This document shows, piece after piece, positions 190-26,677 of a stretch of DNA of 38,858 nt; position 1 is the first letter of the stretch, and each line of letters begins with the position of its first letter. This stretch comes from Candidatus Cloacimonadota bacterium (GTDB lineage Bacteria; Muiribacteriota; UBA6191). A model generated the notes under the pieces. The model worked only from the letters and a program-made list of their open reading frames with translations, was not told the origin of the DNA and made no database searches. A program made the position numbers and the translations under genes. The stretch spans positions 1 through 38,858 of the forward strand of contig JACFNL010000027.1 of the NCBI GenBank assembly GCA_019454875.1. The letters run 5' to 3'.

Positions 190-235
190 TGATAATGTCG
201 TCTTGTCGATTTTTTAAATATTTGTGGAGATGAAC

Positions 236-6200: not shown

Positions 6201-9200
6201 TGAAAACCGTAAATGTGGAGCTTTTGGTTGCCTTACCTGTGGTTGCATCCTTTATGGATTCGCTGGATGATTATATCATTTTGCCAGGCATCAGTTTGGA
6301 TGTGGACAGCTATTTGGAAACCGTGGTAGTCCGAGTTAAGACGGGTTTTTCGAGTTTTCCTCCCATCGGCCTTCGTCGACTTGAAGTAAGTCCAGATGTT
6401 TATATGACAGGTCAGCAGATTACTTCCTTAGATAAGGTAGACAACCAATTGTACATGGGTCTTAGGGATAGCACTAATGCGGATTTGGTAGTGTTAGGCT
6501 TAAGCTCGCCAACTACAAGTGCTATGGATGTTTCATTTGTACTTGAAAACCCTACCTCAAGTAGAGGTTCTTTAGATTCCGAAATTGTGAGTTCTGGTAA
6601 CTGGCAGCAGTTTGCTTCTTTAGGTAGTGTTTTATCCATTGTGCCAGTTAGTGCAACCCATGCCATGTTTGTAGTTAATGCCAGTCCAGTAAACTCTCCC
6701 AATGTGTTTCTGGCTGATATTAGCGGGGCAAATCCGTTAGAGACTCCCTTAGTCAAGGCCTTTGAACATGAAATTCTGAGTCCTCCCTTCACGAGATTTC
6801 AACCTGGAAACTTGTCAAAGTTAAGTGCACTTACCAAACGCAATGGTGTGTTTTACGGAATCAATGATTCAGGTCAGTTGATTCGAATTGAAGGGGAACA
6901 GGCTAAAGTACTGACACCTGTATCCAGAACACAACTCAAGGCGACTACTGACAACAGTCTGGAGTTGCAGGCCGCTCATTTTCAGGACAATATTTCGAGA
7001 CTGATTGGGGTTCCTGATACCAGCTGGTCAGGAAATCATAATCCTCCCAGCAATCACTGGTTCGTGTTATCAGAGAATGGCGAGATCTATTACTGGCAGG
7101 TTCAGACAGGATTTATGATGCCACTTGAACATGGTTTTCGGTTTTTAGATATGAAACTGGATGCCCAGAATGAGGATAAGGTATTTGCACTAGATGAGCT
7201 TGGGGTACTGTACGAGTTAACCGTGGAGACAGATCCTTTGATGATTAAGACTGAGGAAGTGTTAAGGCTTAATCCTTTACTTTCTGGATCTACCATGCGT
7301 TTTGAATACGCACAGGCAGCCGATATCCTGTTTTATTCTGTGAATGGCACCCTGTATCGTAGGGATAACGGTCAGGAAACGGTTTTTGCAGAAACGAATG
7401 AGGACCAGTTTCATTTTGACGAGATTTTTATGACAAACCCATCTGGCAATGAGATTATTGCTTCTGTCAGACGCGGATTTGGTGCCTTTAGCTTCTACAC
7501 CTTGGAAGCAATTTATGCAAGTTCCATGAGTCGTATGCGTTTTAGCAACCACAAAATTATTTTTCATCGTCATCAGGGCAAAGCGTTAGGAGTTATAGAA
7601 TTTGTCTACGGTGACCACCTTGATTCCAACAGCTTGAAACCAGTGGGAACGGATGTTGATTTGTCTGGTGGCATGATGTCTTCCGACATGCCTGCTTCTA
7701 CAATCTTTTTCACAAAAAATCAGGCTGGTGTTACCCTGGCCGGTGTTTCAAGACCGGAATCAGGGCGAATGTCTGTTGTTCAGAGGTTCAGTCACAGACC
7801 ATTGGGTATGGGTATGCCCGAGGTTATTGACATGACCCTGACAAAAAGTGGGGTACCGGACATTTTGCAGACCGGCGATCAGTTTACAGCCAGAATACGG
7901 TTGCAGAACTGTATGGGGCTTTGTCAGCCAGTAGCAACTCTGTTTCAGCATCCGTTGCACTTCCGATCGTTACCAAATCATGAGTTTGAGGCTCATTTTG
8001 TGGCTGGCCCCCGGGAAGCGTTTTATAATGGTGTGACTCTTAATAATATTCATATTCTCTCTGAGCATGGAGTACATCGCTCCTTTGTAAGTTCGGAAAT
8101 TTCATTCAGTTCCAATGAGATTGAAAGCGCAGCACCTGTGAGTGTTGGCATAGTGTCAGCTGGATCTTTAACTAGTTCCACGCCACAGTCTGTAGTGCTT
8201 GCCTTTAAGAATAGAACAGACATTGGTTTGAGCGGCACCCATATGCAATTGTTTAGAGATGGTGGGAAGGCATGGCAGGGTTTTGTTTCCCTAAACCCCG
8301 GTATTTCTTCATCGGGGATTGAGACAAGGTCTGTTACATTGAATTCTCAATCGATAGCCGAATACCCCATCACCTCCAATGAACCTTTAATTTTTAGCCT
8401 CGGTAGTTCTAGTTTTGGAGGGCCTCCCGTTCCCATGGAAATCAAGGGTGCTGGTCAGCTTGCAGTATTTTCAATGAATCTTACTTCAGGGGTGACCCTG
8501 AATTTATCTGGTCTGGGGCTACCCGAGTTTGTGGGAGATTTGGCCCTGGAAAACTGTGGCCCAAACACCCAGATTTTTCTTCCTAATGAATATTATATGG
8601 ACTCTGTTCCTGTGATAACTGGAAAAATTCTGGAGGTTGATGCAAATTTTAGTGGACAGTGCAGGGTGGGCCTGAATAGTCACGACCCATCAAAAAGATC
8701 GGTACTGTTCAAATTCAACAAGTCTGAGTCGGGATTTGTGATGCCAAGGATTCGTGTCAGTGCTGGTACATTCACTATGGGAGCACCGGCTGGGGCTGAA
8801 TTTCAAAACAGTGATGAAGCCTTAAGGCAGGTTACATTGACCAAAGATTTTTTTTTGGGAACCTATGAAGTCACTCAGGCTGAGTGGCTTATGGTTATGG
8901 GCTCATGGCCTGATATCTCTCCATCACTGGCAGGAGATAACTATCCAGCAATCAATGTTTCCTGGGTTGATATCAATCAGGTAGGTGGATTTCTGGATCA
9001 ACTCAATACTATGGTTGGATGTGATATTTCCTCATTGCCTACAGATTTGAACACCCGTTACCAGCCTGATAATCTAGGAGCGGGATGTTATCGATTGCCG
9101 ACAGCGGCTGAGTGGGAATATGCGGCTAAGGCAGGCACTAGTACACTATGGAGTTTTGGAGATGACGGATTAGATGGTGACCCTTATGTGTGGCATAGTG

Positions 9201-9493
9201 GAAACTCCTCCGGCTCTTACCAGGAAGTGGGCGGAAAACAGCCTAATCCCTGGGGATTTTACGATATGCATGGCAATGTAGCAGAATTTGTCTTTGACAG
9301 AAGCGGTCTGCATACAACAAATCCGAGAACAGATCCTTTTGGACCTGATCAGTTTGTTGGTCCAAATCCTGAGCATAGAGGGGGAGCGTACAATCAGACA
9401 ATTGGATTCACCCGTTCGGCTAAACCTGGTAATGGTGGGGAGAGTAATCGTCAGAACAATTTGGGATTTAGGCTTGTCTACACTGTTGAGTAG
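236..9493 (+). CDS. Giant exported protein with chitobiase-C-like repeats and C-terminal SUMF1-type domain (3,085 aa)
   Basis: I chose ATG 236 because GGAG at 226-229 sits 6 nt before it; GTG 224 and ATG 230 lack a properly spaced site. Residues 1-24 form a Sec signal peptide (MTFFKRLIFVLLTLSF...). Around residues 531-598 and 690-762 are two chitobiase C-terminal-type Ig modules, with FYTQDGSIPT and LYYTTNGELPT as hallmark strands, and a weaker third near 797. From about 945 to 2600 the chain is beta-rich with propeller-like repeats, such as VYFMSKGPGRVMRLD. The last 245 residues, from about 2840, are a SUMF1/formylglycine-generating-enzyme-type fold: RLPTAAEWEYAAKAG, NPWGFYDMHGNVAEF, RGGAYN and a final GFRLV. 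The C-terminal stretch holding the FGE catalytic cysteines has no Cys here, so a binding or structural role is likelier than sulfatase activation. The gene converges with its neighbour, stops 2 nt apart. Localisation is extracytoplasmic; the actual role is unknown. Confidence 0.85.
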   Translation: MTFFKRLIFVLLTLSFTQTLLSNSYQICLGYATSDQTVSELVEAIHPDLSGYTVYSLGAGGWHHYWDKGVLNRVNSSSHRLRSKPLVSLKRGQGYILRTDAACDESNSGSSQNLQFLNDGWILFGFGNPNTIFLNDLTILDKEGKTSPNLVLEALVFVKESGQWMPVSKRGILPYEPVLLRALAGTQILISPSEEIISLAAAPHHFTPRQSISMSELESEDGPQILVEVHSSNDKTITGLEWQVSLDGVIGSYQPATGFSPFVSTLHHKLLLPRFTGDAWVRVKAIRNGDTNLESEWLKLRSNQAGWNLSKMFDLLKTGSNPTLSLSLASLGSVSGVLPAGYPSARIQNIELSLSGADFSTRSFQFSGAETSARIPVPFGNDRKIDLSYYDDSGDLLRRGTKVFQATQANVAITPEPVPTGLPQPVASVASMAFLSTQPVSFSLSEALTNATLVIMKGLSNPKSLQSTQSLIRVTTYSEDLTQSTTFQIFVEMADGRRGGTFSYHYVKTEIPQVIAAVSGLLPETDSYFSQNAQLVIHSDIPGSRIFYTQDGSIPTINSPNGISPLSLQVSQSTTFRYFAQSPFGYMSSIETKELKRTIIPELQVLYSNSRSDGRFLDSLTLTFSSNDNLGFVRIANQNRSLPHTLVVSDTGILVYEPVSLEGFLGSAISLNLQKITTPSVHFELYPYHPDNTFVGSALAQFMGQINHRLYYTTNGELPTPGSANVLLPVTFTLTDSVMYRYFAADEFGFVSPIQSVSLSRVEPPSIVLETIPENALIEGFDDSVIVKILNVEPGHTIRYTFDPVLPVEQWLVLGGNQIAVYDSTDLRYQVLDSASNVIFDQTLVLVKNEPISLDLYSDTVFAQGNTFKFNVPSAVAPNILVEVDGSPISFSSENLGNLTRITVSDLSTGSIVRVVQLDQDDNEIKSRTVSVVQPKMNSFFESDPFGLRHEYYNQFSHGMIATVAYDHELGEVYFMSKGPGRVMRLDNQGVLHSVYEPAFYSDSFSGVVGAPLAVSGGKVFRILPSQPNGTPNVLIQYDRFSQEKIDLSNASSICTDCVNLSDMIFGGESYPLNKVSFDVPYIDLYTQTSSIYSMQVVGDRLYFLLDGILMEADLQLNTLQSVAGNLGQYVGPDNGLSEWNSIADFAVTLERTATDSLLLSTITSNFQLGFYMLKADGLERGSVTTHWFMGPELGSYDPNQSVSFENFPVDQVNGVNAIMRNNGIEIYLKLGHELVRIDPQTQTIVPVVGFSLSGFSDQIPARLSQMRRIVGDVYSANDRLVIGFKNLSSYEYPGSNYEYFGIANPSTDIINPLFHYSGQGASGLLRIDDMVSLNDGSMLLEYDYPSYQMYFKRHGISEVSDDDSLLRSPNKLSGLYPVESSKRMYTVSSASYYGEFGRFVFVDWLSSQSSYLSMGLADPGADPMSLYMNLPGYMFNHEPIQGIDWLDVAYRNQLGVSQILVPANPHFSAYFSGEEIIYYLLRQASGDYVLYKASLANPELPVEKLRTYFNGQIPLANNETYTLDLRAGLRTDGTSLFVINEGSLIQLDQTNWSANLIFKSYADTDNEFLAGPSRQLEVQFIKKVGDKVYILGSLPSGSRNLILWDDGQFVPIMPVGFQIGDEHLYPHVPLIAHTNFHGRLTGSFPFQTPNAQIFDWRGALLVLGSDNYSSAGFILDLDGGDGPDIPVIDNVVRNGNLVTASRSESDNDLLGYAASTEISYNSTQVTFFEETGTASYSGTLFEGLVAIDSLGRRSTPSFAGASINFDFVADLSSYLSLSGPLSIPSGFSSVIDENMYSIPLYLPSFTYRVHLRSVDAYGNELAHNVLETDSRISHYHEIQYFWTSDLIVPGAVKIVASVDSFSGTFSAVEFDLVQPYWLGVMGLEGAGLPASMSNLAEFSKIKTIGSHVFLVPSVTQGYDTVYPISSLFVMDESETINEIRIKRVDLETPAYIGPLDVTVGNDGHLYILHTDSSATIVLRSIESWNAQMKTVNVELLVALPVVASFMDSLDDYIILPGISLDVDSYLETVVVRVKTGFSSFPPIGLRRLEVSPDVYMTGQQITSLDKVDNQLYMGLRDSTNADLVVLGLSSPTTSAMDVSFVLENPTSSRGSLDSEIVSSGNWQQFASLGSVLSIVPVSATHAMFVVNASPVNSPNVFLADISGANPLETPLVKAFEHEILSPPFTRFQPGNLSKLSALTKRNGVFYGINDSGQLIRIEGEQAKVLTPVSRTQLKATTDNSLELQAAHFQDNISRLIGVPDTSWSGNHNPPSNHWFVLSENGEIYYWQVQTGFMMPLEHGFRFLDMKLDAQNEDKVFALDELGVLYELTVETDPLMIKTEEVLRLNPLLSGSTMRFEYAQAADILFYSVNGTLYRRDNGQETVFAETNEDQFHFDEIFMTNPSGNEIIASVRRGFGAFSFYTLEAIYASSMSRMRFSNHKIIFHRHQGKALGVIEFVYGDHLDSNSLKPVGTDVDLSGGMMSSDMPASTIFFTKNQAGVTLAGVSRPESGRMSVVQRFSHRPLGMGMPEVIDMTLTKSGVPDILQTGDQFTARIRLQNCMGLCQPVATLFQHPLHFRSLPNHEFEAHFVAGPREAFYNGVTLNNIHILSEHGVHRSFVSSEISFSSNEIESAAPVSVGIVSAGSLTSSTPQSVVLAFKNRTDIGLSGTHMQLFRDGGKAWQGFVSLNPGISSSGIETRSVTLNSQSIAEYPITSNEPLIFSLGSSSFGGPPVPMEIKGAGQLAVFSMNLTSGVTLNLSGLGLPEFVGDLALENCGPNTQIFLPNEYYMDSVPVITGKILEVDANFSGQCRVGLNSHDPSKRSVLFKFNKSESGFVMPRIRVSAGTFTMGAPAGAEFQNSDEALRQVTLTKDFFLGTYEVTQAEWLMVMGSWPDISPSLAGDNYPAINVSWVDINQVGGFLDQLNTMVGCDISSLPTDLNTRYQPDNLGAGCYRLPTAAEWEYAAKAGTSTLWSFGDDGLDGDPYVWHSGNSSGSYQEVGGKQPNPWGFYDMHGNVAEFVFDRSGLHTTNPRTDPFGPDQFVGPNPEHRGGAYNQTIGFTRSAKPGNGGESNRQNNLGFRLVYTVE
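8741..9490 (+). other. SUMF1/FGE-sulfatase-type domain within the giant exported protein
   Basis: The domain runs from MPRIRVSAGTFTMG to the terminal NLGFRLVYTVE. Visible landmarks are the opening V-x-x-G-x-F-x-M-G, YEVTQAEW, INVSWVDI, RLPTAAEWEYAAKAG, PWGFYDMHGNVAEF, a late RGG and GFR. This matches the SUMF1 family in order and length. The segment between RGG and GFR, where true FGEs carry their active-site cysteine pair, has none. Confidence 0.85.
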
Positions 9494-9495
9494 TC

Positions 9496-11958
9496 TTAGC
9501 CTTCTGCAACAAACAGGGACTCTTCAATTGGTTTGATTTCGTGCAGGTACTGAACCCTGGACTGTACTTCCTGATCCATGAGAATTTTGTATTTGAGATT
9601 GGGAGCGACTGATTCATCTATTGAGTCCAGATTGGCTACAAGACAGGGCGTACGGTAAAGACTATCACCGAGGCACACAAATGTGGTTTGTTGCGTAGAT
9701 ATTCTACATACCATTTTTACATGCTCGGGAAGCAGGTGTGCCAGATCCAGAGCCGCTAAAAAGCTGTCGACCTGGGGCCTTGCACTCAAGGAGTATGGGA
9801 TAGCCATAAGAAACTTGAGGCAGATGTCTTCTGAGTACAGTAGGGGATATCGTGCACATATTTTTTTCAGATGAGAGCGGGGATCAAAATTTAAGTCCTG
9901 GCTGATAAACTGAAGCTGAATTGATACCGATTGTTCCATCTTTTGGGGTATTGAGTGACTTCCCTGACTCAAGTAAGTTTGTGATGCAGGACTAAGGTAG
10001 GGGAGTGCCTTTAGTTTTTCCAAAATGGTTTGCCTTAGAAGCAGAAGTTTTTGCGTAAGGCTGTTTTTGAAATTAGTATCCTTTTTTAGTTCCTCTGATT
10101 TGTAGAACTTCAAATCAAGAACCATTTCTTTGAGATTTTTCAAAACCAGTAGTAATGCGGATTTGAATTGCAGGAGCTGCCATACAACAAAAACCAGGGC
10201 CAGAAACATCAAAAGCATAGGTGTGCGAAGATAAATATTGTGCTGATTATGGATGTTCTGAACCGAACTCAAAACCAGAAACTTGCGATCCGTTGGAAAT
10301 TCAAAACCCCAAAAAGTACTCAGCCATAATCCCAGATAGTTCCATTCCAGCCACAGAGATTCACGGACTCCATGCAGGTTAATGAGATTTTCTACTTCAT
10401 ATTGTGGGATTTCATTTTGTGTAAATTCTTCGGGCGGCCTGGAGGCTGCATCAAAAACCATCATCAGGCTTTTGATGTCCATATTTTGGCTTTTCATCTG
10501 TTTCAGAACTGTAGGTAACTGAGACCCAAACCACTGGTTGGCAATATCCTTTTGGGAATAGCAGAAAGATTCGGCATGAACTGGTTGTAGGGACAGGGTT
10601 TTTGAGCTGCAAAACAGGGTATCCTCCTGCCAGCTAACCAGGATTAGATCGTTGGCAAAGGGATTATTTAAAGCCTGGTCCACCATTTTTCTGTAGTTGT
10701 GACTGCCTCGGCTCAAATTTCTGGCAAGATTACGGGCTAATGGGGCAACAGGGGTTTTATCGTGACGATTGGAACCTAAAATGGATAGCAGCAGTACCTT
10801 AAGCACAGGGTCATTCACATTCTCAAAGTGAGCCTGGTCGTTGTCTAAGCGACAGCGATAAACAGGCAGGTTTGTAGTTGTTTGATCCAGTGAGGAGAGA
10901 TGATTTACATAGTCATCGATATTCTGTTTAAGAATCGAGCTAATATTTAAAACGGTCTGGGAACGAAGATACCCCTGATGATTCAGATGATATGGCTCAA
11001 GCCAGATCCAAAGAAGAATCATGGATATCAAAATTGGAAGAGATGTATATAAAAGATAACGAAACTCAAAACGGGTAGCCAATATCAGATAACCGCCCTT
11101 GCGATAGAGCCAGATACCGGGAAGCAGAAGACAAAGTATCAAATGGGGCCTGATGCTTAGATGTTCATAAAATGTTTCAGGCTGTCTTGAGTAGACAATG
11201 CCGGGACTCACTTCGGAGTAGACTTTTTTAGCCTGTCCCCATATAAAGGCATCCTCAAAACCAAGAGACAGGTTTTTATGCCCTCCAATAAACATCTGCA
11301 TGGCTTCCTGCTTCAGATTTTCCGGTTGCAGAGGATCCAGATGCACCACATAAAGGACATTCCAGTCACCCAGTGAAAAATACCAGCGCAAAAGGAAGTT
11401 GCCTTTTTTGAATATCATTTGAAAACGGTTGGCAGTAGCTAAAAACTCTTCATAAGTTATGGGAAAACTGTAAAGAGATTTTGCCCTTTGCACAAACAGA
11501 TCCCCTCCGGTTCTCATACTTAGAAATAAAAGCCTGGCCCAGTCCTTGCCAAAATACTCCTCAAAGTTTTGGCCAAAATGGTGGGTGAGGCGACCTTTGC
11601 GGGAGACAAACAACCCTGTTGCCCCGATCATGGGGAGTTTTGGAAAATCCGTTGGTGCCAGAGTTTCTGAGGTGGCAAGAATGGACCGTAGTCTGGAGAG
11701 AAAGGGATGGGAAACAATCTCGGCTAGACGGATGGTTCTTTCATCATTTACAAACGAGGACTGCTTTTCACCAATCAGCCCTAAAAAATTGACCTTATGA
11801 TTCAAAATTCGTTCAAATTCAGCTTGAGCCACCTGTTTTTGGCGTTGTACAGAGGTAAGCCAGCTAATCGAGCACAGGGCAAACCAAAGAAGCATAAGAC
11901 AAATCACGAAGATAAGCTGCAATCCATAATATCCCTGAAAAAACTTTAGTATTCTCAA
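9496..11958 (-). CDS. Four-TM membrane protein with two extracytoplasmic domains, sensor-like (820 aa)
   Basis: No family is recognised. Hydrophobic segments lie at about residues 12-33, 269-287, 297-320 and 578-595. This predicts an inside N-terminus, two extracytoplasmic domains (34-268 and 321-577) and a cytoplasmic tail of about 225 residues that begins with a helical, Lys/Leu-rich stretch. The tail shows no histidine-kinase, GGDEF or PP2C motifs by eye. The start is TTG at 11958, overlapping the TGA of the upstream gene (TTGA). A full GGAGGT sits at 11965-11970, 6 nt away, so the unusual start codon is well supported. It is the last gene of the minus-strand operon and abuts the 3' end of the giant exported protein gene. 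Together with the preceding HAMP protein it may form a membrane sensing pair; that is inference. Confidence 0.8.
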   Translation of the reverse strand: MRILKFFQGYYGLQLIFVICLMLLWFALCSISWLTSVQRQKQVAQAEFERILNHKVNFLGLIGEKQSSFVNDERTIRLAEIVSHPFLSRLRSILATSETLAPTDFPKLPMIGATGLFVSRKGRLTHHFGQNFEEYFGKDWARLLFLSMRTGGDLFVQRAKSLYSFPITYEEFLATANRFQMIFKKGNFLLRWYFSLGDWNVLYVVHLDPLQPENLKQEAMQMFIGGHKNLSLGFEDAFIWGQAKKVYSEVSPGIVYSRQPETFYEHLSIRPHLILCLLLPGIWLYRKGGYLILATRFEFRYLLYTSLPILISMILLWIWLEPYHLNHQGYLRSQTVLNISSILKQNIDDYVNHLSSLDQTTTNLPVYRCRLDNDQAHFENVNDPVLKVLLLSILGSNRHDKTPVAPLARNLARNLSRGSHNYRKMVDQALNNPFANDLILVSWQEDTLFCSSKTLSLQPVHAESFCYSQKDIANQWFGSQLPTVLKQMKSQNMDIKSLMMVFDAASRPPEEFTQNEIPQYEVENLINLHGVRESLWLEWNYLGLWLSTFWGFEFPTDRKFLVLSSVQNIHNQHNIYLRTPMLLMFLALVFVVWQLLQFKSALLLVLKNLKEMVLDLKFYKSEELKKDTNFKNSLTQKLLLLRQTILEKLKALPYLSPASQTYLSQGSHSIPQKMEQSVSIQLQFISQDLNFDPRSHLKKICARYPLLYSEDICLKFLMAIPYSLSARPQVDSFLAALDLAHLLPEHVKMVCRISTQQTTFVCLGDSLYRTPCLVANLDSIDESVAPNLKYKILMDQEVQSRVQYLHEIKPIEESLFVAEG

Positions 11959-13616
11959 GGTTTGACCTCCGCGATATGAGGCGGGAATCCAGGTCTTGGG
12001 GGCAGGAGACGAACCGTTACGGGTCTGGTTTTAAAGGCAGGTGGTAACACTAGTACAATCTGCTTGTTACTGGTGAAGATCAGGGTCTTGTGATTCAGAT
12101 GCAAAATGGCGGCATCGGATAACTGGCTTAAAATTTCGGGAGCATGATCTAGCATATTGCCGGATACTTCGGTTGCGTCCAGAACCTGGTTCTGATGGGC
12201 AAGAATCGTTTTTAAGGTCTGATTGTTTGGCTCCTTGTGCAGGTTCCACCAGGAGTTAATCTCTAGCATTGTTTTAGAATGAAACTGTTCTGTAGCCAAA
12301 GATTCTGCCCGTTCGATGAGAAACTGATTAAAGAGCTGGGCAATTTCTGAGACCTGATCACGGCCTGTTCGTGTTAGGGGTAGAGGTTGTTTATCTTCTA
12401 TGAGCTCGTCAATTGCCTTATGGATGTGTCTTAATGGTTTTCCTAAACTGTAACCCATCAATAGGGACATGGGTAGTGGAGCAATTATCAAGGCAAGGCC
12501 TATCAGATAGAGGGTGTTTTCGGATTCTATCTGTTTTTGTAACAGTTCATCTGCTGAAATTTCCATCAATAGATGGGTTTTTTCTAAAAGACCGGCAATG
12601 GGCTTAATGCCATAAACCCTAAGACCGCTTCTGCCTAGGCAAACAAATTTATCCGGCAGGGATTTAAAAACCTGATTTTTATTGTCATTTAGATTAAGAA
12701 GGTGGGTTTGGGCAGGTAGGCGATATGGTCTTTGTTTTGCTCTTTCTGCAAACTTTTTTAGTTGTAACTTTACGGAAAGATCGGTTTTTTCCTCTGTGAC
12801 TAATCCAATCATGAACCAGAAGCCGTTTTTTTCAAGATCAATATAGGTCCAAAATGCTTTAACATCTTTGGAAGATTCAAAGAGCCTCAAGGAACTGGCG
12901 TTAAACAGACGGTTAGGGTTGTTAAGAAACAAATCCAGAAACTGGATCCCATGAAATGAGTCTCTTAACATATCTTTGGCCATACTCAGGGTCTGGTACA
13001 CGGAGTTGGAACTGTCTTCCTGGGCTTCCCGAACCTTTAATCTGACAATGCTTTGCAGGGTAGGTAGCAGCATGAGGCTGTTTTCATGCATAAGTTCCGA
13101 AGTCAGATTGATTAACTGACTCCCATTGCTTAATACTGCCTTTACCTGTGAGGTGTCGCTCCAACGGCGAAACCACTGGCTTAACTCGTCTTTGGCATCA
13201 GTTGGAATCAAAAGAAGTTCAGCTTTGCCTTTTTCTACAAACTGTTTTAACTCCAGGGAAAAACCTTCTTCTAGCTGATCGGAGAGCCGGTGTACTTCCT
13301 TAAAGTCAGACTCAAGTTCTACAAGTTCTTGCACAAGCCCTGTTTCTACACCTTTGTGGATAGAATAAAATCCTGCCCCATAGAGTAAAATTCCGGATGG
13401 AACTAAGAGAAAAGACAATTGTTTAAGAATTGGTCCATATAGGTCATTGTCTTTCAGATAGCGATAAAACAGAAAAAGACCAAAGAGACAGGACATACAA
13501 AGAAATAGGCCCCATACACTCCTACCCAAAGAGTGAATCAGGCTAGGAATCATTTGGATGGCATCCTGTTCAATCAGCCCAAACTGAATTTCATCGGCTA
13601 AAAGACTAGGACTCAT
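11955..13616 (-). CDS. HAMP-domain membrane protein, receptor-like without visible output domain (553 aa)
   Basis: The frame is open up to 13718, but that extension lies inside the cNMP-binding gene upstream. I place the start at ATG 13616, 16 nt after the upstream stop (13633-13635); ATG 13553 with AGGA upstream is an alternative. Two hydrophobic segments (about 34-52 and 66-86) precede a mainly helical, probably extracytoplasmic region to about 365. A third TM follows (LIGLALIIAPLPMSLLMGYS, about 369-390) and then a HAMP module (residues about 390-440) with PLRHIHKAIDELI and GRDQVSEIAQLFNQFL. The roughly 110-residue tail has no kinase, cyclase or methyl-accepting motif that I can see. It resembles a chemoreceptor/kinase front half without the usual output, so its signal may pass through a partner, possibly the co-translated downstream protein. 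Confidence 0.8.
   Translation of the reverse strand: MSPSLLADEIQFGLIEQDAIQMIPSLIHSLGRSVWGLFLCMSCLFGLFLFYRYLKDNDLYGPILKQLSFLLVPSGILLYGAGFYSIHKGVETGLVQELVELESDFKEVHRLSDQLEEGFSLELKQFVEKGKAELLLIPTDAKDELSQWFRRWSDTSQVKAVLSNGSQLINLTSELMHENSLMLLPTLQSIVRLKVREAQEDSSNSVYQTLSMAKDMLRDSFHGIQFLDLFLNNPNRLFNASSLRLFESSKDVKAFWTYIDLEKNGFWFMIGLVTEEKTDLSVKLQLKKFAERAKQRPYRLPAQTHLLNLNDNKNQVFKSLPDKFVCLGRSGLRVYGIKPIAGLLEKTHLLMEISADELLQKQIESENTLYLIGLALIIAPLPMSLLMGYSLGKPLRHIHKAIDELIEDKQPLPLTRTGRDQVSEIAQLFNQFLIERAESLATEQFHSKTMLEINSWWNLHKEPNNQTLKTILAHQNQVLDATEVSGNMLDHAPEILSQLSDAAILHLNHKTLIFTSNKQIVLVLPPAFKTRPVTVRLLPPRPGFPPHIAEVKP
11965..11970 (-). promoter_or_regulatory. Strong Shine-Dalgarno site deciding a TTG start
   Basis: The minus strand reads GGAGGT, then CAAACC, then TTG. 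The spacing of 6 nt is ideal and no other in-frame start nearby has a comparable site. It lies inside the last codons of the upstream HAMP-protein gene, so the two genes are translationally coupled. Confidence 0.75.
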
Positions 13617-13632
13617 TAAAATCAGATTCCCA

Positions 13633-14112
13633 TCAGGGTTTAGTTTCCAGTGATTCCAGCTCCTTGCGCAATGCCCCGAATTCCCCATTTTTCTTGCGAA
13701 AATCATTGGAAAGTTCAATGATCAATCTGAGTTCCAGCTTTGCGAGGATGGCTGCCGCCGAGTTTTGCAATCTTCGAAAATCCAGGGTGTTGATCCATAA
13801 CAAATCCAGTTTATCCATGGCCCTGGCATTGTACCGTCTGGCTGCGGCCTCACCAAACAGGGTATTTTCACCCTCAAAATCCCCTGGATACAGGGTGTCT
13901 ATGTTTAGATGTTCCTTAGCGTCCCCAATGGAATCATAAAGCTCCATACGGCCTGAAAGTATTAGGATGATCCCGGCCTGAATTCTACCCTTCTCAAAAA
14001 CCACAGAACCTGCTGTAAAGCGTTTGATACTGGAAAACTGTAGCAGTTTTTTCAGCTCAAGCAGATCCAGATCCACAAACAGATTAAATTTATGAAGATC
14101 GTTAACCAGCAT
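13633..14112 (-). CDS. Stand-alone cyclic-nucleotide-binding-fold protein, second tandem copy (159 aa)
   Basis: This is a single CRP-like beta-roll with no DNA-binding helix-turn-helix; the C-terminus is one helix. The frame opens at GTG 14121, but ATG 14112 is chosen because it aligns exactly with the start of the neighbouring paralogue (MLVNDLHKFNLF versus MLIEEIKNFDIF). The phosphate-binding cassette keeps G81-E82 and R93. The following residue, normally Ser/Thr, is Tyr94 (ARRYNA), and charged residues surround it, so ligand binding may be altered. The paralogues share the motif TLDFRRLQ near the C-terminal helix. The gene is translated 1 nt after the paralogue's stop. It likely acts as a cytoplasmic regulatory module of the membrane or pilin proteins in this operon. 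Confidence 0.85.
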   Translation of the reverse strand: MLVNDLHKFNLFVDLDLLELKKLLQFSSIKRFTAGSVVFEKGRIQAGIILILSGRMELYDSIGDAKEHLNIDTLYPGDFEGENTLFGEAAARRYNARAMDKLDLLWINTLDFRRLQNSAAAILAKLELRLIIELSNDFRKKNGEFGALRKELESLETKP

Positions 14113-14113
14113 T

Positions 14114-14593
14114 TTAGGCACTCTTTGTTTTTAATTCTGCAATTTTTTCGCTGGCTTCCCGTATATCCAGTTTTAGTTTCTTGTGTCTTACAGACAGGGC
14201 CATAACCATTCGTAACAACAGTTTTGAAAGAATTTTGGGGCCTGAACTTTGTAATCTGCGAAAGTCAAGAGTAGATATCCAGACAGCAGTCACCCGTTCA
14301 AAAGCCAGAGCCGATGCAGTTCGTTTCTGGGTTCCGTCGCCAAACAGAGACATCTCCCCCATAAACTCACCAGCCTTTAATTTTGCCAGGGAAATTTTAT
14401 TTCCACCTGGTTCAATAAAGATTTCAATGACACCCTTCAGAATAAGAAACAAACCGGATCCAGGATCTCCCTGTCTGAAAATGATCTCATCCTGAGCAAA
14501 TTGTTTCACCTGGGCAAACTGCAAAAATTTCTTTACTTCAATTTCTTCCAGGTCCTTGAAGATGTCAAAGTTCTTGATCTCTTCAATCAGCAT
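14114..14593 (-). CDS. Stand-alone cyclic-nucleotide-binding-fold protein, first tandem copy (159 aa)
   Basis: A CRP-type cNMP-binding domain occupies almost the whole protein: IIFRQGDPGSGLFLILKG, then the phosphate-binding cassette G79-E80 ... R91-T92-A93 (GEMSLFGDGTQKRTA). That cassette keeps the Gly-Glu and Arg-Ser/Thr-Ala pattern used to bind cAMP or cGMP in CRP, so binding of a cyclic nucleotide is plausible. The C-terminus is a charged helix (about 130-159) and there is no HTH or enzymatic domain. The start ATG 14593 lies 4 nt after the FecR-domain gene, with GGTGA upstream. It is probably a regulatory subunit, not a transcription factor; the partner is unknown. Confidence 0.88.
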   Translation of the reverse strand: MLIEEIKNFDIFKDLEEIEVKKFLQFAQVKQFAQDEIIFRQGDPGSGLFLILKGVIEIFIEPGGNKISLAKLKAGEFMGEMSLFGDGTQKRTASALAFERVTAVWISTLDFRRLQSSGPKILSKLLLRMVMALSVRHKKLKLDIREASEKIAELKTKSA

Positions 14594-14597
14594 TACA

Positions 14598-15338
14598 TCA
14601 CCAGGTTTCCGTCAAAGGATTAAATTTGGTTACTTCCAGGAGTGCCCCATTTACAATGGAAATGGTTTCTCCGGTCTGTAATATCACAGACTTTTCTCCC
14701 CGTTCAAAGCGCACAGCCCCGGCAGAAACCCTTATGTCGGCCCCATTAGGCTTACGAATTACCTTAAAGAGGGAAGGTCTTGCATAAACGGTACCGTCAA
14801 GAACCTTGATTTCGAGTAAACCATCCGAGCCTCTGGAATCAAAAACCACATCCCCGGCCTCGACAAACAGATTTGATTTACTGCCTTGATTCTGATTAAA
14901 AATTTCCATTCCTGTCAGAAAAAGTTCACTCTGTCCCAAAAGTCTGATGATGACACGATCAAATGTTTCCAGATTCAGAGTGGAGTTGGCTTGTGTACGG
15001 AATTGATGTTTTATGAAGCGCTGTGTACCCGGTTTTACAGGAGTCCAGTCCACTGTGGCATCTTCGCGTTCCTGAGCTGTTCCGGTAAAGCTGACCATGG
15101 ATATAAACATTTTGGATCGGGCATCTTCGTCTTTTTCGCGCTGGGACATGATAACCATCACAGAGCCAAGGCTAACAAATAAAAACAGGGTTAGAAAAAT
15201 GCCGGCAATAGTAAAATTGGAACGAGCTGCAGTCTTTTCTGTAAACTGCTCCTGCTCCGCCTGCCTTTTTTTGATACGGCGGCGACGCTGTCGTTCCTTA
15301 TAATCTACAAACTCTAATTCCTGCCACTTTTTTGCCAC
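14598..15338 (-). CDS. Membrane-anchored FecR-domain protein (246 aa)
   Basis: Residues 1-42 are strongly charged and basic (KERQRRRRIKKRQ) and should stay in the cytoplasm. Residues about 43-65 form a single TM helix (FTIAGIFLTLFLFVSLGSVMVIM). The remainder is a periplasmic beta-rich FecR-type domain: RVIIRLLGQSELFLTGMEIF, LFVEAGDVVFDSR, IKVLDGTVYARP, ADIRVSAGAVRFERG. Classical FecR proteins are anti-sigma regulators, but I see no sigma-factor gene here. In this operon the domain may be structural or peptidoglycan/surface associated. The start is GTG 15338, 23 nt after the pilin stop; the ribosome binding site is weak. It sits between the pseudopilins and the cNMP-binding pair. Confidence 0.82.
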   Translation of the reverse strand: MAKKWQELEFVDYKERQRRRRIKKRQAEQEQFTEKTAARSNFTIAGIFLTLFLFVSLGSVMVIMSQREKDEDARSKMFISMVSFTGTAQEREDATVDWTPVKPGTQRFIKHQFRTQANSTLNLETFDRVIIRLLGQSELFLTGMEIFNQNQGSKSNLFVEAGDVVFDSRGSDGLLEIKVLDGTVYARPSLFKVIRKPNGADIRVSAGAVRFERGEKSVILQTGETISIVNGALLEVTKFNPLTETW

Positions 15339-15361
15339 GACACTACCGTATCGTCAATGCC

Positions 15362-16267
15362 TCACGGTGTATTGACGGTTACCCCTACATTTGCCTGAAA
15401 TGTTTTACGAATCACTGCGTTTCCCATCCAGGGGGCTACACATACAATATCAAGCTCCACAGTTCTGGAGCGGTCATTATCCTTGGCATAAACTTTAACT
15501 GCAAGTGTAGCAACACCAGAAGCCAATCTTTTTTTTCCGATCAGGCCTCTTTGTTCCGGGGTCATATTGCCACCGGCTGCCGTCTGATAGCTAGGATTGT
15601 AGTTTCCTTCCCCCTGTAACACATTGGTGGGATTCATTACCCCCGTGTAGGAATATCTGGTTTCCAGAAAGAGTTCTGAATAGAACCCATAGGACTGTGT
15701 ATTGGCTGAAAGAACCCTCTTGGTTCCTTCCAGGTAAAGCTCATGAGTTCCACACAGGGGATTGTTTGGTGCGCCTTCAAATCCGGGGACATCCCTGTAG
15801 CCAGGATCACAGGTAACCCACTCCATGATAGATATTTTGTTGCCAGTCGCTTCGGATAAACCCGTTTTTGTACCGGAACCAAAAAACTGAAGTGTCTGGG
15901 CTGCTCCCGAATCGATTTGGGGATCCCCATCGGCTAAATTGATGGTGGCTGTGGAATAAGCTTCACTGGCGTTTAAATTTCCCGTTTTGACTTCTACAAA
16001 AAACTGGGGGCGTTTGTCCCTTACCGTACCTTGAAAGGTGTTAAGAGTAGGATAAGAAGCTTCGCGTAAAAGTTTATTGATCCGTACTGAGGCTGCATCC
16101 AGACTCTGCTGGGTCTGGTTTCTCCATAAGGATTCATTAAACTGTCTTGAACCCCCCAAAAACAATTGACCGATAAACAGGCCTAAAAATGCCAGAATAC
16201 CTGAAACAATCAGGATTTCTACCAGAGTGAATCCCAGACGGCCCTCATACCTTATAAAATTTGGCAT
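15362..16267 (-). CDS. PilW/GspJ-like minor pseudopilin (301 aa)
   Basis: The protein carries a class-I type III signal: a short basic leader ending in Gly, cut before Phe, in RLG/FTLVEILIVSGILAF, with the conserved Glu at mature position 5. The hydrophobic helix that follows should insert in the inner membrane and pack in a pilus core. The globular part, about 265 residues, is larger than a major pilin, fitting PilW or GspJ minor subunits. The start ATG overlaps the stop of the preceding pilin-like gene by one base (TGATG). It would need a prepilin peptidase and assembly ATPase encoded elsewhere; none is in this window. Confidence 0.85.
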   Translation of the reverse strand: MPNFIRYEGRLGFTLVEILIVSGILAFLGLFIGQLFLGGSRQFNESLWRNQTQQSLDAASVRINKLLREASYPTLNTFQGTVRDKRPQFFVEVKTGNLNASEAYSTATINLADGDPQIDSGAAQTLQFFGSGTKTGLSEATGNKISIMEWVTCDPGYRDVPGFEGAPNNPLCGTHELYLEGTKRVLSANTQSYGFYSELFLETRYSYTGVMNPTNVLQGEGNYNPSYQTAAGGNMTPEQRGLIGKKRLASGVATLAVKVYAKDNDRSRTVELDIVCVAPWMGNAVIRKTFQANVGVTVNTP

Positions 16268-17172
16268 CAGTCGTCTCCCCGTCGTACCTCATAAACTCCG
16301 GTTACTACTTCTCCTCGTTTGGCTGAGGCAAGAGTGGAATCAAATTCCTGCCCGAAATTAAATTTTTCCTGGTTTGAGACCTGCATATCTACCATTTCAT
16401 CAAATCCGGAGCCAGCCTGGGAAGTGGAGTATCTTAAATAGACCCGGGTCAGATTTTTAGCCCCGGAAGATGCTCCAGCTGTTACAGGGGAAATCATATC
16501 ATCTCGTTTCACATATCCACGGGTAGAAATCATAACGGATTCTGTGGTGTAGCTCATTGCCCCCTGAGAACCAAAAACAAAGATTCTTTCCAGAATATAG
16601 TCCCCTGAAAATGGATCGCGCCAATTCGGTCCCATTGCCAGATCGTTGTGAGCCGTAGAATTGATGTGTACTACCTTCTGGAAGCCGTTTTCAGGATAGC
16701 TGGTACGAATGTCCTTGATGAAGCGGTTAAGATGGGTGGCCATCGGCCCGTCAAATCTTAGATCCTGAGGAGTGAGATTCCATTGCCCTGTACGGGATAC
16801 TACGGGAGGGGGTGGATTGGCTCCGGTTTGAGGGCAGCCTGTCACTGTAACAGTGCCTGTAAAAAACATGGGCCCTGGATTGGTATCCATATCCAGACAG
16901 CGGGTAAAATCATAATAGGGATTTTTGCCGATTGCGTAGGCGACCGCATCGTAGAACTGGGTTGGCAAAGAGCGTATTTTTGCCAGGGCATGCTGTTGCC
17001 CACCCTTGGCAACAAACAGGGATTGTAGTCTCTCGCGCATCTCAAAAACCCGTTCTTTGGATTCTCCACCAGTCTGCATCATGATGATGGCAAAGGCCAT
17101 CAGGGTCATACCGATCATGATGACAACCAGAACACTAAAACCCTTTTGCTTGTTGATTGGGGATGGTCTCAT
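16267..17172 (-). CDS. PilX/GspK-like minor pseudopilin lacking Glu5 (301 aa)
   Basis: The N-terminus is a basic leader and prepilin-type cleavage site, KQKG/FSVLVVIMIGMTLMAFAI. Mature position 5 is Val, not the usual Glu, a property of the tip subunit GspK and some PilX-like proteins. The globular part carries a Cys pair (RCLD...VTGCPQ) and a Pro-rich PPPPVV segment. The start ATG shares ATGA with the stop of the PilV-like gene. By analogy it would sit at the tip of a pseudopilus primed with its PilV- and PilW-like neighbours. The role is inferred from the N-terminus and gene order. Confidence 0.8.
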   Translation of the reverse strand: MRPSPINKQKGFSVLVVIMIGMTLMAFAIIMMQTGGESKERVFEMRERLQSLFVAKGGQQHALAKIRSLPTQFYDAVAYAIGKNPYYDFTRCLDMDTNPGPMFFTGTVTVTGCPQTGANPPPPVVSRTGQWNLTPQDLRFDGPMATHLNRFIKDIRTSYPENGFQKVVHINSTAHNDLAMGPNWRDPFSGDYILERIFVFGSQGAMSYTTESVMISTRGYVKRDDMISPVTAGASSGAKNLTRVYLRYSTSQAGSGFDEMVDMQVSNQEKFNFGQEFDSTLASAKRGEVVTGVYEVRRGDD

Positions 17173-18212
17173 TTATCCCTCGCAAGGTTGGCCTTAAACG
17201 ATACAAGCCAGAATTCCTGGTCTTCTCTGGCAGCTCCTGCACCGCCAAGCCCTCGAGGGCTCCACTTGATTCCTAGTACAATTTTCATCAAGGCCCCATC
17301 GTCCTGACCGTCACCATCAGCATCATGTCTGTGGTGGGTCGGTTTGTCGTCATAACGGGGCTGGTAGGGTCGATCCAGAAGAATCTCATCCAGAATTTCA
17401 TCGGCGGCATTTTCCCTGGCACGGTTGTTGGGAGCAGAATGTCCATCAGTAAAAGCCGTGGTTCCAGGAGAGGGGAAGCCAAAACGATAGTTTGGCCCCA
17501 TTGGGTCTGAGGCATTGTTGCTGTAATGTTTGCCTGCACTTGCTCCCGAGAGCTGTTTGTAGGGATTGATTGGTCTGACATTGGTAACTCGGCATCCGGT
17601 ACTGTCAGCTGCTAGTCCACTCAGAGATGCAGAAAAATCCAGGGCACAGTCATTTTGGGCATCAAACCAGGGATTGGGGTAGTAGGAAAAGGTCAGCTCC
17701 CCTCCGGGATTGGCATTTCGTTTTAGTCTGATAGTCCGGCTGCCACCCCCAGGAGAAAGAGATGTATCGGGATTGGTAGCCCCGTTTTCTTTATAAACTC
17801 CGGCATAAAAAAGAATTTTATAGTCTGTGCCTCTGCGAGAAATAATCCTGTCCCCATCCGCATCGGTTTTGTAGGTTCCACCATTGCCTCCTAGCACTGA
17901 TTTTAAATCAAAGGACGCAAAGTTAAGACTGCCACGGGAATCCAGAAACTCGGCCTGGGTACGACCGGAAAGGGTGGCTGTCCCACCTCCATAGCCTTGT
18001 TCATCAATCGCTAGAAAGGGAACATCTTCAGAAATTAATCTTTCCATGATGTTGTTAGCCATGTCCATAGCCACTACCCAGGATTCGGAGAATTCGTTGG
18101 ACCGGTTGTTCATACTGAACAGGCCCATAACAGGTAAAAGAAAAGTCACCAGAATCGAGATTCCGACCATGATTTCCACAAGGGTCATGCCGATTCTGGT
18201 AACTTTTTTCAT
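17169..18212 (-). CDS. PilV/GspI-like minor pseudopilin (347 aa)
   Basis: The prepilin signal is RIG/MTLVEIMVGISILVTFLLPVMGLF, with Met at mature position 1 and the conserved Glu at 5. About 300 residues of Gly/Asn/Asp-rich globular domain follow, including DADGDRI and DADGDGQDDG stretches that look like calcium-binding loops. The start ATG overlaps the PhoH gene stop (ATGA), with GGAG 5 nt upstream. It is the first of three consecutive minor-pilin-like genes, the order usual for PilV-PilX-PilW or GspI-K-J clusters. Length is well above the roughly 130-180 residues of typical PilV, pointing to a specialised exposed domain. Confidence 0.85.
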   Translation of the reverse strand: MKKVTRIGMTLVEIMVGISILVTFLLPVMGLFSMNNRSNEFSESWVVAMDMANNIMERLISEDVPFLAIDEQGYGGGTATLSGRTQAEFLDSRGSLNFASFDLKSVLGGNGGTYKTDADGDRIISRRGTDYKILFYAGVYKENGATNPDTSLSPGGGSRTIRLKRNANPGGELTFSYYPNPWFDAQNDCALDFSASLSGLAADSTGCRVTNVRPINPYKQLSGASAGKHYSNNASDPMGPNYRFGFPSPGTTAFTDGHSAPNNRARENAADEILDEILLDRPYQPRYDDKPTHHRHDADGDGQDDGALMKIVLGIKWSPRGLGGAGAAREDQEFWLVSFKANLARDK

Positions 18213-19567
18213 AGTAGCTCCACCGCCAGGGCAGCTAGTTGACTCCGCTCCGATTTCACAAAGTTTGTGTGGGCAAATATACTCTGTCCCTTAAAGCGTT
18301 CTACCACATAAGTAAGACCATTGCTTGAAGGATCAAGGTATGGATTATCAATCTGATAAGGATCCCCGGTGAGGATAACCTTGGTATTGGTTCCGGCCCG
18401 GGAGATGATGGTTTTCACTTCATGCGGGGTCAGGTTCTGGGCCTCATCCACAATCAGCCACTGATTGGCCAAAGAACGGCCACGGATGTAGGTAATTGCC
18501 TCCATTGCGATTTTGTCATTTTTCATCAAAAACTCAACATATTCACTAGGAGTACTTTCGGTGATGTAGTTATCGGTAATAAAGGAGAGATTATCAAAAA
18601 TTGGCTGCATCCAGTGGCTGAGCTTTTCTTCCTTGCTTCCAGGCAGATAACCAATGTCTCGGCCTAGTGGCATAATGGGGCGAGATACCAGCATTCGTTT
18701 ATACCGTAGATCATCCACAGCCTTTTTTAAACCTGCTGCTAATGCCAGAAGTGTTTTTCCAGTACCGGCTTTTCCCACGAGAGTTACAAGCTGAATCCGA
18801 TCATCAAGAAGAGCATCTAAAGCAAATTCCTGCTGTTGATTCATGGCGGATATACCCCAGGGATTTTCTCCCTGATTGGATAAGCCTAAAATGGTTGAAG
18901 TCGGTTTATCATATCGTCCTAAAAGTTCCTCGGAAGCATTTTTCATCTTCAGAATGACATATTCATTATGAAACAGGGACGGATCCAAAAACTGTACTGT
19001 GCCATTGGAGGCAAAATCAGCATAAACATCAGGGGATACATAAACTTCTTTCCATCCCTGATAAAATTCATCAAAATTGATTTTTTCTGACTCAAAGTCC
19101 TCGGCCAGAAGCTGTAAGGCATCACCCTTGATTCGGGCATTGATATCCTTGCTGACAAAAACGACCTGCATTTTTTTCTGATTTTTGATTTGCAGAAATT
19201 TGGCACAGGCTAATATCTGATTGTCTGTGATATCCATATTCATGTGATGGGGAAGATGATTTTCAAATTCCGTCAGAACCTGAATATTGCCTCCCGCTTC
19301 AGTAGGTACACCTTTCATCAGACTGCCTTTGGCACGAAGATTATCCAGAATGCGGGCAACTTCGCGGGCATTTCGTCCTCTTTCGTTGGTTTCTTTCTTG
19401 AAGCGGTCAAGTTCTTCAATCACCTGGATTGGCAGCACAACATCATTATCCTTGAAGGCCATCAGACTTGTGGCACTATGTAGAAGTATATTAGTGTCAA
19501 GGACAAAAATCTTTTTCAGATTGGACTTTTCTTTTTTCTTGGGTAGGGTTGTATTTGCTTCAGTCAT
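18209..19567 (-). CDS. phoH2: PIN-PhoH fusion ATPase (PhoH2 type, 452 aa)
   Basis: The N-terminal PIN nuclease domain starts at FVLDTNILLHSA (Asp24) with further acidic positions at Glu51-Glu52, in MDITDNQILA and in VFVSKDINAR. The C-terminal PhoH P-loop domain has Walker A GKAGTGKT (residues about 264-272), SRPIMPLGRDIGYLPG, Walker B LIVDEAQN (about 375) and LTGDPYQIDNP. The architecture and length match PhoH2 proteins, which are reported RNA-unwinding nucleases acting in the cytoplasm. It leads the minus-strand operon, overlapping the PilV-like gene by 4 nt, an odd partner for pseudopilins. Its start ATG is 53 nt from the oppositely oriented lipoprotein gene, so a short divergent promoter region controls both. 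The ribosome binding site is weak. Confidence 0.95.
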   Translation of the reverse strand: MTEANTTLPKKKEKSNLKKIFVLDTNILLHSATSLMAFKDNDVVLPIQVIEELDRFKKETNERGRNAREVARILDNLRAKGSLMKGVPTEAGGNIQVLTEFENHLPHHMNMDITDNQILACAKFLQIKNQKKMQVVFVSKDINARIKGDALQLLAEDFESEKINFDEFYQGWKEVYVSPDVYADFASNGTVQFLDPSLFHNEYVILKMKNASEELLGRYDKPTSTILGLSNQGENPWGISAMNQQQEFALDALLDDRIQLVTLVGKAGTGKTLLALAAGLKKAVDDLRYKRMLVSRPIMPLGRDIGYLPGSKEEKLSHWMQPIFDNLSFITDNYITESTPSEYVEFLMKNDKIAMEAITYIRGRSLANQWLIVDEAQNLTPHEVKTIISRAGTNTKVILTGDPYQIDNPYLDPSSNGLTYVVERFKGQSIFAHTNFVKSERSQLAALAVELL

Positions 19568-19582
19568 ACTAATAGGTTACTC

Positions 19583-19610
19583 TTTACAAAAGACAAAAAG
19601 CAATTAGAAT
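19583..19610 (+). promoter_or_regulatory. Putative sigma70-type promoter giving a near-leaderless transcript
   Basis: TTTACA (19583-19588), a 16-nt spacer and TAGAAT (19605-19610) each match consensus at 5 of 6 positions. The -10 box ends 10 nt before ATG 19621, so the predicted 5' leader would be only a few nucleotides. The box also overlaps ATG 19609, which argues that the upstream ATG is not used. Confidence 0.4.
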
Positions 19611-24623: not shown

Positions 24624-24627
24624 TTTT

Positions 24628-25611: not shown

Positions 25612-25677
25612 CTTCCGTAGCGGTATCAAGGAAACTGTTCCCGGGTTCAGCGCACAGCAGCCACAGGGAGTGATTTT

Positions 25678-26658: not shown

Positions 26659-26677
26659 ATCATGAACAGGCTCTAAG
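26657..26677 (+). repeat. Right copy of the 21-bp perfect direct repeat
   Basis: Identical to 20451-20471. It begins in the stop codon of paralogue B and contains the stop codon (complement of 26673-26675) of the giant minus-strand lipoprotein gene. Collapsing the two copies would leave the lipoprotein gene at 19621 and the giant gene converging with 15 nt between stops. Confidence 0.9.

What the first reader, a model, noticed from the sequence alone, without database searches (positions are those of the whole stretch)
9496..19567. Nine-gene operon linking PIN-PhoH, three pseudopilins, FecR-like, twin cNMP proteins and HAMP membrane proteins
Gaps are minus 4 to plus 23 nt, with several stop/start overlaps, so co-translation is likely. 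The combination joins an RNA-acting ATPase, pilus tip-type subunits, a periplasmic FecR domain, cyclic-nucleotide sensing and two unrecognised membrane receptors. I know of no described system with this set. A second-messenger-controlled surface appendage or secretion pseudopilus is a reasonable hypothesis.
Basis: partly seen in the sequence, partly recalled or inferred. Interest (0 to 1): 0.6.

Follow-up and report, generated by a model that had tools for sequence, protein, structure and literature searches.

The report
Pilus-tip operon with dead cyclase receptors
This is a real gene cluster in an uncultured bacterium that most likely builds the tip of a thread-like surface pilus, has been kept in the same order across much of its phylum, and in this lineage has gained two cyclic-nucleotide-sensing proteins and a pair of membrane sensors that descend from signal-making enzymes but have lost their catalytic parts.

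Summary
The nine minus-strand genes exist, are tightly packed and are under selection. They are a layered assembly, not one unit. Core: PIN-PhoH, then PilV/GspI-, PilX/GspK- and PilW/GspJ-like minor pilins. PhoH and PilX lie together in 28 of 36 PhoH-bearing genomes of the phylum (Riflebacteria/UBP17 lineage), 25 with a FecR-domain membrane protein after them; in sister groups FecR precedes uvrA (25 of 28 loci examined). The twin cNMP genes follow FecR only in the window's family (4 genomes). The two membrane receptors are attached only in its genus (2 genomes). The receptors are no longer unrecognised: they belong to a multicopy tandem pair family whose intact members carry class III cyclase domains with the active site split between partners (A: K, D, N, R in 10 of 10, no metal Asp; B: both metal Asp in 9 of 9, no N/R). 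The window pair has lost these residues but stays open and conserved. Best reading: a type IV pilus tip/priming operon with a recent cyclic-nucleotide/pseudo-cyclase sensory add-on. The anatomy is shown by computation; control of the pilus is inferred.

The parts
18209..19567 (-). PIN-PhoH protein (PhoH2 type), 452 aa; only PhoH match in the genome
   Evidence: PF02562 157 bits, PF13638 113 bits; single match in G000
17169..18212 (-). PilV/GspI-like minor pilin, 347 aa, E5 present
   Evidence: class III signal read directly (RIGMTLVEIMVG); TIGR02523 pilV 3e-4 and gspI 1.3e-3, both below cut-off; alignment A3
16267..17172 (-). PilX/GspK-like minor pilin without E5 (KGFSVLVVIM), 301 aa, lineage-restricted family with a PTxxYDA..GKNP signature
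   Evidence: alignments A2/A7; 39 of 39 phylum genomes, 4 of 50 others and only in the N-terminal helix; model matches type IV pilins
15362..16267 (-). PilW/GspJ-like minor pilin, 301 aa, E5 present (LGFTLVEILIVSG)
   Evidence: TIGR02532 15.5 bits, cut-off 16.3; alignment A5
14598..15338 (-). bitopic FecR-domain protein, 246 aa: conserved basic N-terminus, one TM, FecR domain after it
   Evidence: PF04773 28.9 bits; invariant K3 W5 E9 D12 K14
14114..14593 (-). cN6: single-domain cyclic-nucleotide-binding protein with an intact GE...RTA cassette
   Evidence: PF00027 69 bits; aligned to PKG
13633..14112 (-). cN7: second cNMP protein, degenerate phosphate-binding cassette
   Evidence: PF00027 45 bits; alignment A4; weaker PDB matches
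11955..13616 (-). HAMP8: partner A of a receptor-cyclase pair family; sensor region, TM and HAMP-like stretch kept, cyclase domain lost
   Evidence: paralogs carry PF00672 and PF00211; residues lost; at this place in the genus only
9496..11958 (-). MEM9: partner B; two Cache-like sensor regions, degenerate cyclase-like C-terminus
   Evidence: paralog matches to 4.6e-33; Cache matches Z 8.3 and 8.5, guanylate cyclase Z 6.3 on 629-820; residues lost

Best explanation
It is a minor-pilin operon of a type IV filament. PilV, PilX and PilW form the GspI-GspK-GspJ-like complex that primes and caps the filament, with E5-less PilX at the tip. FecR is an inner-membrane protein whose conserved cytosolic tail binds a cytosolic partner while its periplasmic domain sits by the assembly site. 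PIN-PhoH, first in the operon, would tune this transcript or a linked RNA. In this family cN6 reads cyclic nucleotide and, with the degenerate cN7, forms a cytosolic sensor unit at FecR. In this genus HAMP8-MEM9, a catalytically dead descendant of a two-gene receptor cyclase, adds periplasmic ligand sensing without making the messenger. SHOWN (computed): gene content and order, layers of conservation, minor-pilin features, intact versus degenerate cassettes, homology to cyclase receptors, loss of catalytic residues, purifying selection. INFERRED: tip function, FecR contacts, RNA role of PhoH, control of the filament by cN6/cN7 and the dead receptors.
For: Order V-X-W with E5-less X; the PilX model's top three VIA matches are pilins, Z 7.0, 6.8, 6.0, next 4.4; pilB-, pilT-, pilC- and pilin-like genes together on contig C193 (L336, read by eye; T2SSE matches); PhoH-PilX linkage 28 of 36, with FecR 25 of 36; seven-gene order in all four family genomes and nine in both genus members; FecR-cN6 and cN6-cN7 gaps of 0-4 nt in all four (coordinates); cN6 cassette intact; cyclase ancestry of the receptors; selection on the genes; another cNMP protein lies 8-9 nt after a T2SSE-like gene in G000 and G001.
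Against: cN6-cN7 and the receptors are late, lineage-limited neighbours, so they cannot be essential for the core. FecR travels with uvrA in lineages where it is far from the pilins. G026 and G037 keep PhoH-V-X-W without FecR, and G032 has lost PilW and the PilV signal. A gap of 162-221 nt precedes FecR in G003 and G002 (coordinates), so FecR may have its own promoter there. No physical contact or expression was tested.
Confidence: 0.5

Rival explanations
1. Conserved gene string without a joint machine: housekeeping genes (PhoH, and in sister groups UvrA and RadA) flank a minor-pilin set; FecR, cNMP proteins and receptors are passengers that share transcription.
For: FecR is followed by uvrA in 25 of 28 loci, also where FecR is not by the pilins; members join and leave the string.
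Against: V-X-W stay together and their 1-4 nt overlaps recur in distant relatives (L218, L219, L222); FecR-cN6-cN7 are 0-4 nt apart in all four family genomes.
Confidence: 0.3
2. The pilins belong to a type II secretion pseudopilus, not to a type IV pilus.
For: GspI and PilV models match the first pilin about equally; the genome has several GspE/PilB-like ATPases.
Against: A PilT-like gene next to pilB-, pilC- and pilin-like genes on contig C193 (L336, by eye) points to a retractable pilus in this genome; no Gsp-specific gene was seen in the window's cluster.
Confidence: 0.2
3. DNA-uptake (competence) pilus: the minor pilins bind DNA, and the neighbouring PhoH, UvrA and RadA process or integrate it.
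For: uvrA follows FecR in 25 of 28 loci and a strong RadA match follows it in 11; two of the three best structural matches of PilX are Thermus competence pilins, Z 6.8 and 6.0.
Against: The best match, Z 7.0 and tied, is a Streptococcus pilin not titled competence; FecR-uvrA linkage is wider than the pilin linkage; in the window's family uvrA lies elsewhere; no ComEA, ComEC or DprA search was run.
Confidence: 0.12

Closest known systems
Core minor pilins PilV-PilW-PilX / pseudopilins GspI-GspJ-GspK
   Same: Three adjacent genes, one without E5; PilV matches TIGR02523/gspI weakly; equivalence PilV=GspI, PilW=GspJ, PilX=GspK and GspK as tip cap seen in passages of PMC7248040
   Different: Order V-X-W, large proteins (301-347 aa), PilX family without a Pfam or NCBIfam match and nearly confined to this phylum; no FimU/GspH-like or PilY1-like gene recognised in the cluster
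PhoH2 (PIN-PhoH) proteins
   Same: N-terminal PIN and C-terminal PhoH ATPase domains; NCBIfam PhoH2 271 bits
   Different: Below that family's cut-off of 680; sits before pilins. The mycobacterial PhoH2 toxin-antitoxin was seen only in a search listing and start of abstract (PMC7390352)
Receptor class III nucleotide cyclases (transmembrane adenylyl cyclase C1/C2, soluble guanylate cyclase, heterodimeric rhodopsin-cyclases)
   Same: Intact paralogs of the receptors have the active site split between two partners, as in tmAC; heterodimers that complement missing residues are described in passages of PMC8815786
   Different: Here each partner is a separate, overlapping bacterial gene with its own sensor region; the window's pair lacks the catalytic residues
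FecR sigma regulators
   Same: Short cytosolic N-terminus, one TM, FecR domain (architecture of FecR recalled)
   Different: No sigma factor gene beside it; distinct invariant N-terminal motif; neighbours are pilins and uvrA

Membership tests
Type IV core minor pilins (PilV/W/X, GspI/J/K) | class III prepilin signal and hydrophobic N-terminal helix | tested here: met
   Read in PilV and PilW with E5; PilX has the signal with V in place of E5; Pfam N_methyl only sub-threshold for PilV and PilW, none for PilX
Type IV core minor pilins (PilV/W/X, GspI/J/K) | adjacent genes for V-, W- and X-type subunits | tested here: met
   window and relatives
Type IV core minor pilins (PilV/W/X, GspI/J/K) | pilin fold | tested here: inconclusive
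   PilX model mean pLDDT 54.2; Foldseek best E 0.089; VIA top three are pilins at Z 6.0-7.0
Type IV core minor pilins (PilV/W/X, GspI/J/K) | location at the filament tip | not testable with these tools
   needs microscopy or cross-linking
PhoH2 | PIN plus PhoH domains in one chain | tested here: met
PhoH2 | curated NCBIfam PhoH2 score | tested here: not met
   271 against cut-off 680; that model may be narrower than PIN-PhoH proteins in general
FecR sigma regulator | FecR domain | tested here: met
   28.9 bits, cut-off 24; 6 of 8 relatives match at E 0.1
FecR sigma regulator | adjacent ECF sigma factor gene | tested here: not met
   none among the nine proteins; neighbours in other genomes were not scanned for sigma factors
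cyclic-nucleotide-binding protein | phosphate-binding cassette GE...RTA in cN6 | tested here: met
cyclic-nucleotide-binding protein | phosphate-binding cassette in cN7 | tested here: not met
   PF00027 domain itself is present
class III nucleotide cyclase | homology through paralogs with PF00211 | tested here: met
class III nucleotide cyclase | two metal Asp, purine K/D, transition-state N/R in HAMP8 and MEM9 | tested here: not met
   absent in HAMP8 and, but for one K-aligned column, in MEM9

The most novel reading that the evidence does not exclude
Bacteria of this family use two-gene receptor adenylyl cyclases whose active site is complete only in the heterodimer (metal half in one subunit, purine and transition-state half in the other, as in animal adenylyl cyclases), and at least twice such a pair has been turned into a dead sensor; in the window that dead pair, with a competent and a degenerate cNMP protein, gates assembly of a pilus tip.
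Probability: 0.25. Interest if true: 0.75.

Novelty: new variant of a known kind. Interest (0 to 1): 0.5.

Why it matters
It gives the operon a testable anatomy in an uncultured lineage: a nearly phylum-specific minor-pilin family tied to PIN-PhoH and a FecR membrane protein, with a cyclic-nucleotide layer added later. The pseudo-cyclase pair and its intact relatives would be a bacterial case of two-gene heterodimeric cyclases and of their reuse as pure receptors.

Tried and rejected
Led nowhere: PDB sequence searches with the PilX and FecR profiles found only chance matches; Foldseek with both models gave nothing significant, so only the second look by VIA is used, with its caveat that Z under 8 can be a common arrangement. 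The promoter/terminator scan found fewer sites than shuffles (8 against 16.3, 7 against 10.9) and no minus-strand promoter-like site just upstream of PhoH. Papers: searches for PhoH with PIN domain and type IV pili and for Riflebacteria with pili listed nothing on this linkage; searches for bacterial heterodimeric class III cyclases listed eukaryotic or unrelated papers by title and abstract start; the library is open-access only, so absence is weak. PMC2447327 was searched for 'heterodimer': no occurrence in the held text.

Rejected: the nine genes as one ancient system (the layers differ); the cNMP pair as fixed to the pilins (elsewhere in the phylum cNMP genes lie by a protein that looks like DnaE, see Noticed in passing); HAMP8/MEM9 as pseudogenes (no stops, pN well below pS). 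A single origin of the dead pairs is not favoured: the window pair and the G002:C21/G003:C9 pair do not group in FastTree trees, supports 0.92-0.95 at the relevant nodes for B but poor for A, so 'at least twice' is tentative. The mechanical gene callers in my scripts list false ORFs in the GC-rich G004, G005 and G007, so absence of genes there is weak.
Full report
What is there. The nine ORFs are confirmed with gaps from -4 to +23 nt once cN7 is started at 14112 and HAMP8 at 13616. Upstream, a divergent gene starts at 19609; downstream, a 3089-aa gene on the plus strand ends at 9493. The organism is close to UBP17_UBA6191: contig DITF01000099.1 has the length and gene coordinates of G001:C366; other records with the module are titled Riflebacteria and, once, Wallbacteria.

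Conservation in layers. In G001 (same genus) PhoH, PilV, PilX, PilW, FecR, cN6, cN7 and the start of HAMP8 are on contig C366; HAMP8 continues and MEM9 follows on C296, and the two contigs share an exact 150-base end. In G002 and G003 (same family) the first seven genes are in the same order and other genes follow; HAMP8 and MEM9 are not there. In the class (G004, G005) PhoH, pilins and FecR are kept without the cNMP pair beside them. Across 39 phylum genomes PhoH was found in 36. PilX lies on the same strand within 2.5 kb downstream in 28 of these 36, and FecR follows in 25 of 36 (from the best places on a shared contig). Of the 8 without linkage, G006 and G036 are cut by contig ends and six (G008, G009, G010, G012, G015, G017) belong to families f4, f5, f6 and f8, where the linkage is absent. 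Of the 28, G026 and G037 have FecR elsewhere and G007's contig ends in PilW; G032 has FecR but lacks PilW and the PilV signal.

Outside the phylum. Of 80 PhoH loci, seven carry module genes: L062, L064, L065, L066, L069 and L101, and L063, whose PilV fragment was seen as L239. Of the other 73, 63 have at least 2 kb downstream, and only L085 (Nitrospirae) has pilin-like ORFs within 6 kb downstream (the pattern needs E5 and would miss PilX-type pilins). The PilX profile A2 matches 39 of 39 phylum genomes at 1e-5 (in f4, f5, f6 and f8 mainly over its first 90 to 110 positions), while profile A7 matches 4 of 50 other genomes, weakly and only in the N-terminal helix (50 of the 73 loci's genomes were given).

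FecR. The invariant residues K3, W5, E9, D12 and K14 lie in the basic N-terminus before the single TM, so this tail is better kept than the FecR domain. In the sister groups FecR is followed by uvrA in 25 of 28 FecR loci examined, with a strong RadA match after it in 11; exceptions are L225 (contig end), L251 and L253, and in L250 a small ORF lies between. One such UvrA was confirmed by NCBIfam at 1434.8 bits; the others by similarity to it. In the window's family uvrA lies on another contig or far away, so cN6-cN7 stand in its place.

cNMP pair. cN6 keeps GE and RTA as in PKG domains. cN7 lacks the RTA register, and in G002/G003 also the Glu. In the same genome another cNMP-domain gene directly follows a gene with a T2SSE match, also in G001.

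Receptors. HAMP8 and MEM9 have no meaningful Pfam match, but both belong to a tandem pair family in family f1. Ten proteins of these pairs, all from G000 or G002, were scanned; 8 of 10 match PF00211, and the two without are a truncated B partner and the decayed G002:C21 A partner. On an alignment with five ordinary cyclases of G000, ten A partners have K, D, N and R in 10 of 10 and the two metal Asp in 0 of 10 each; nine B partners have both metal Asp in 9 of 9, R in place of K in 9 of 9, and the transition-state N in 0 of 9 and R in 0 of 9. Left out of these counts are the window pair, its G001 counterpart and the decayed G002:C21 and G003:C9 pairs, which keep almost none of the residues, and the truncated C119 B partner, which was not aligned. 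This is the division of transmembrane adenylyl cyclases (residue roles recalled; the principle seen in passages of PMC8815786). MEM9's model (mean pLDDT 59.9) matches Cache-type sensor domains within 73-215 (Z 8.3) and 317-583 (Z 8.5), and soluble guanylate cyclase at 629-820 (Z 6.3, rmsd 7.1); these are suggestive only. Between G000 and G001 the receptors are 62% identical, the other seven genes 87-97%: the receptors change fastest but stay open.

Function. The pilins fit the core minor pilins that prime and cap a type IV filament (passages of PMC7248040). The genome has pilB-, pilT-, pilC- and pilin-like genes together on contig C193 (read by eye) and 21 T2SSE match segments, so which filament uses this tip is open. 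Everything about how cN6, cN7, FecR and the dead receptors act on the filament is inference.

Noticed in passing
G000 contigs C23, C35, C77, C119, C157 (L328, L305, L308, L304, L307); G002:C9 (L302), G003:C6 (L310): Overlapping gene pairs of membrane receptor class III cyclases with complementary active-site halves (A: K/D/N/R, B: two metal Asp).
   Followed up: yes
L302:1388-1705, L303:3164-3490, L304:3879-4199: A small similar-looking ORF of 105-108 aa sits directly before partner A in three of these loci.
   Followed up: no
L148:13609-17780, L149:3458-6837, L154:596-4412: cNMP genes (two in tandem in L148 and L154) sit directly before a large protein that looks like DNA polymerase III alpha (by eye).
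   Followed up: no
L313, L314, L315 and L312: A second PilV-PilX set, with a divergent PilW in L313-L315, exists in the window's family.
   Followed up: partly
L331:5224-7385 and L333:1228-3390: A cNMP-domain protein directly follows a 405-aa gene with a T2SSE match.
   Followed up: partly
window 224-9493 and 26673-35900: Two giant proteins of 3089 and 3075 aa flank the region; the first ends in a formylglycine-enzyme-like sequence (by eye).
   Followed up: no
window 24571-26658: Two similar tandem proteins of 346 and 326 aa, apparently a recent duplication.
   Followed up: no
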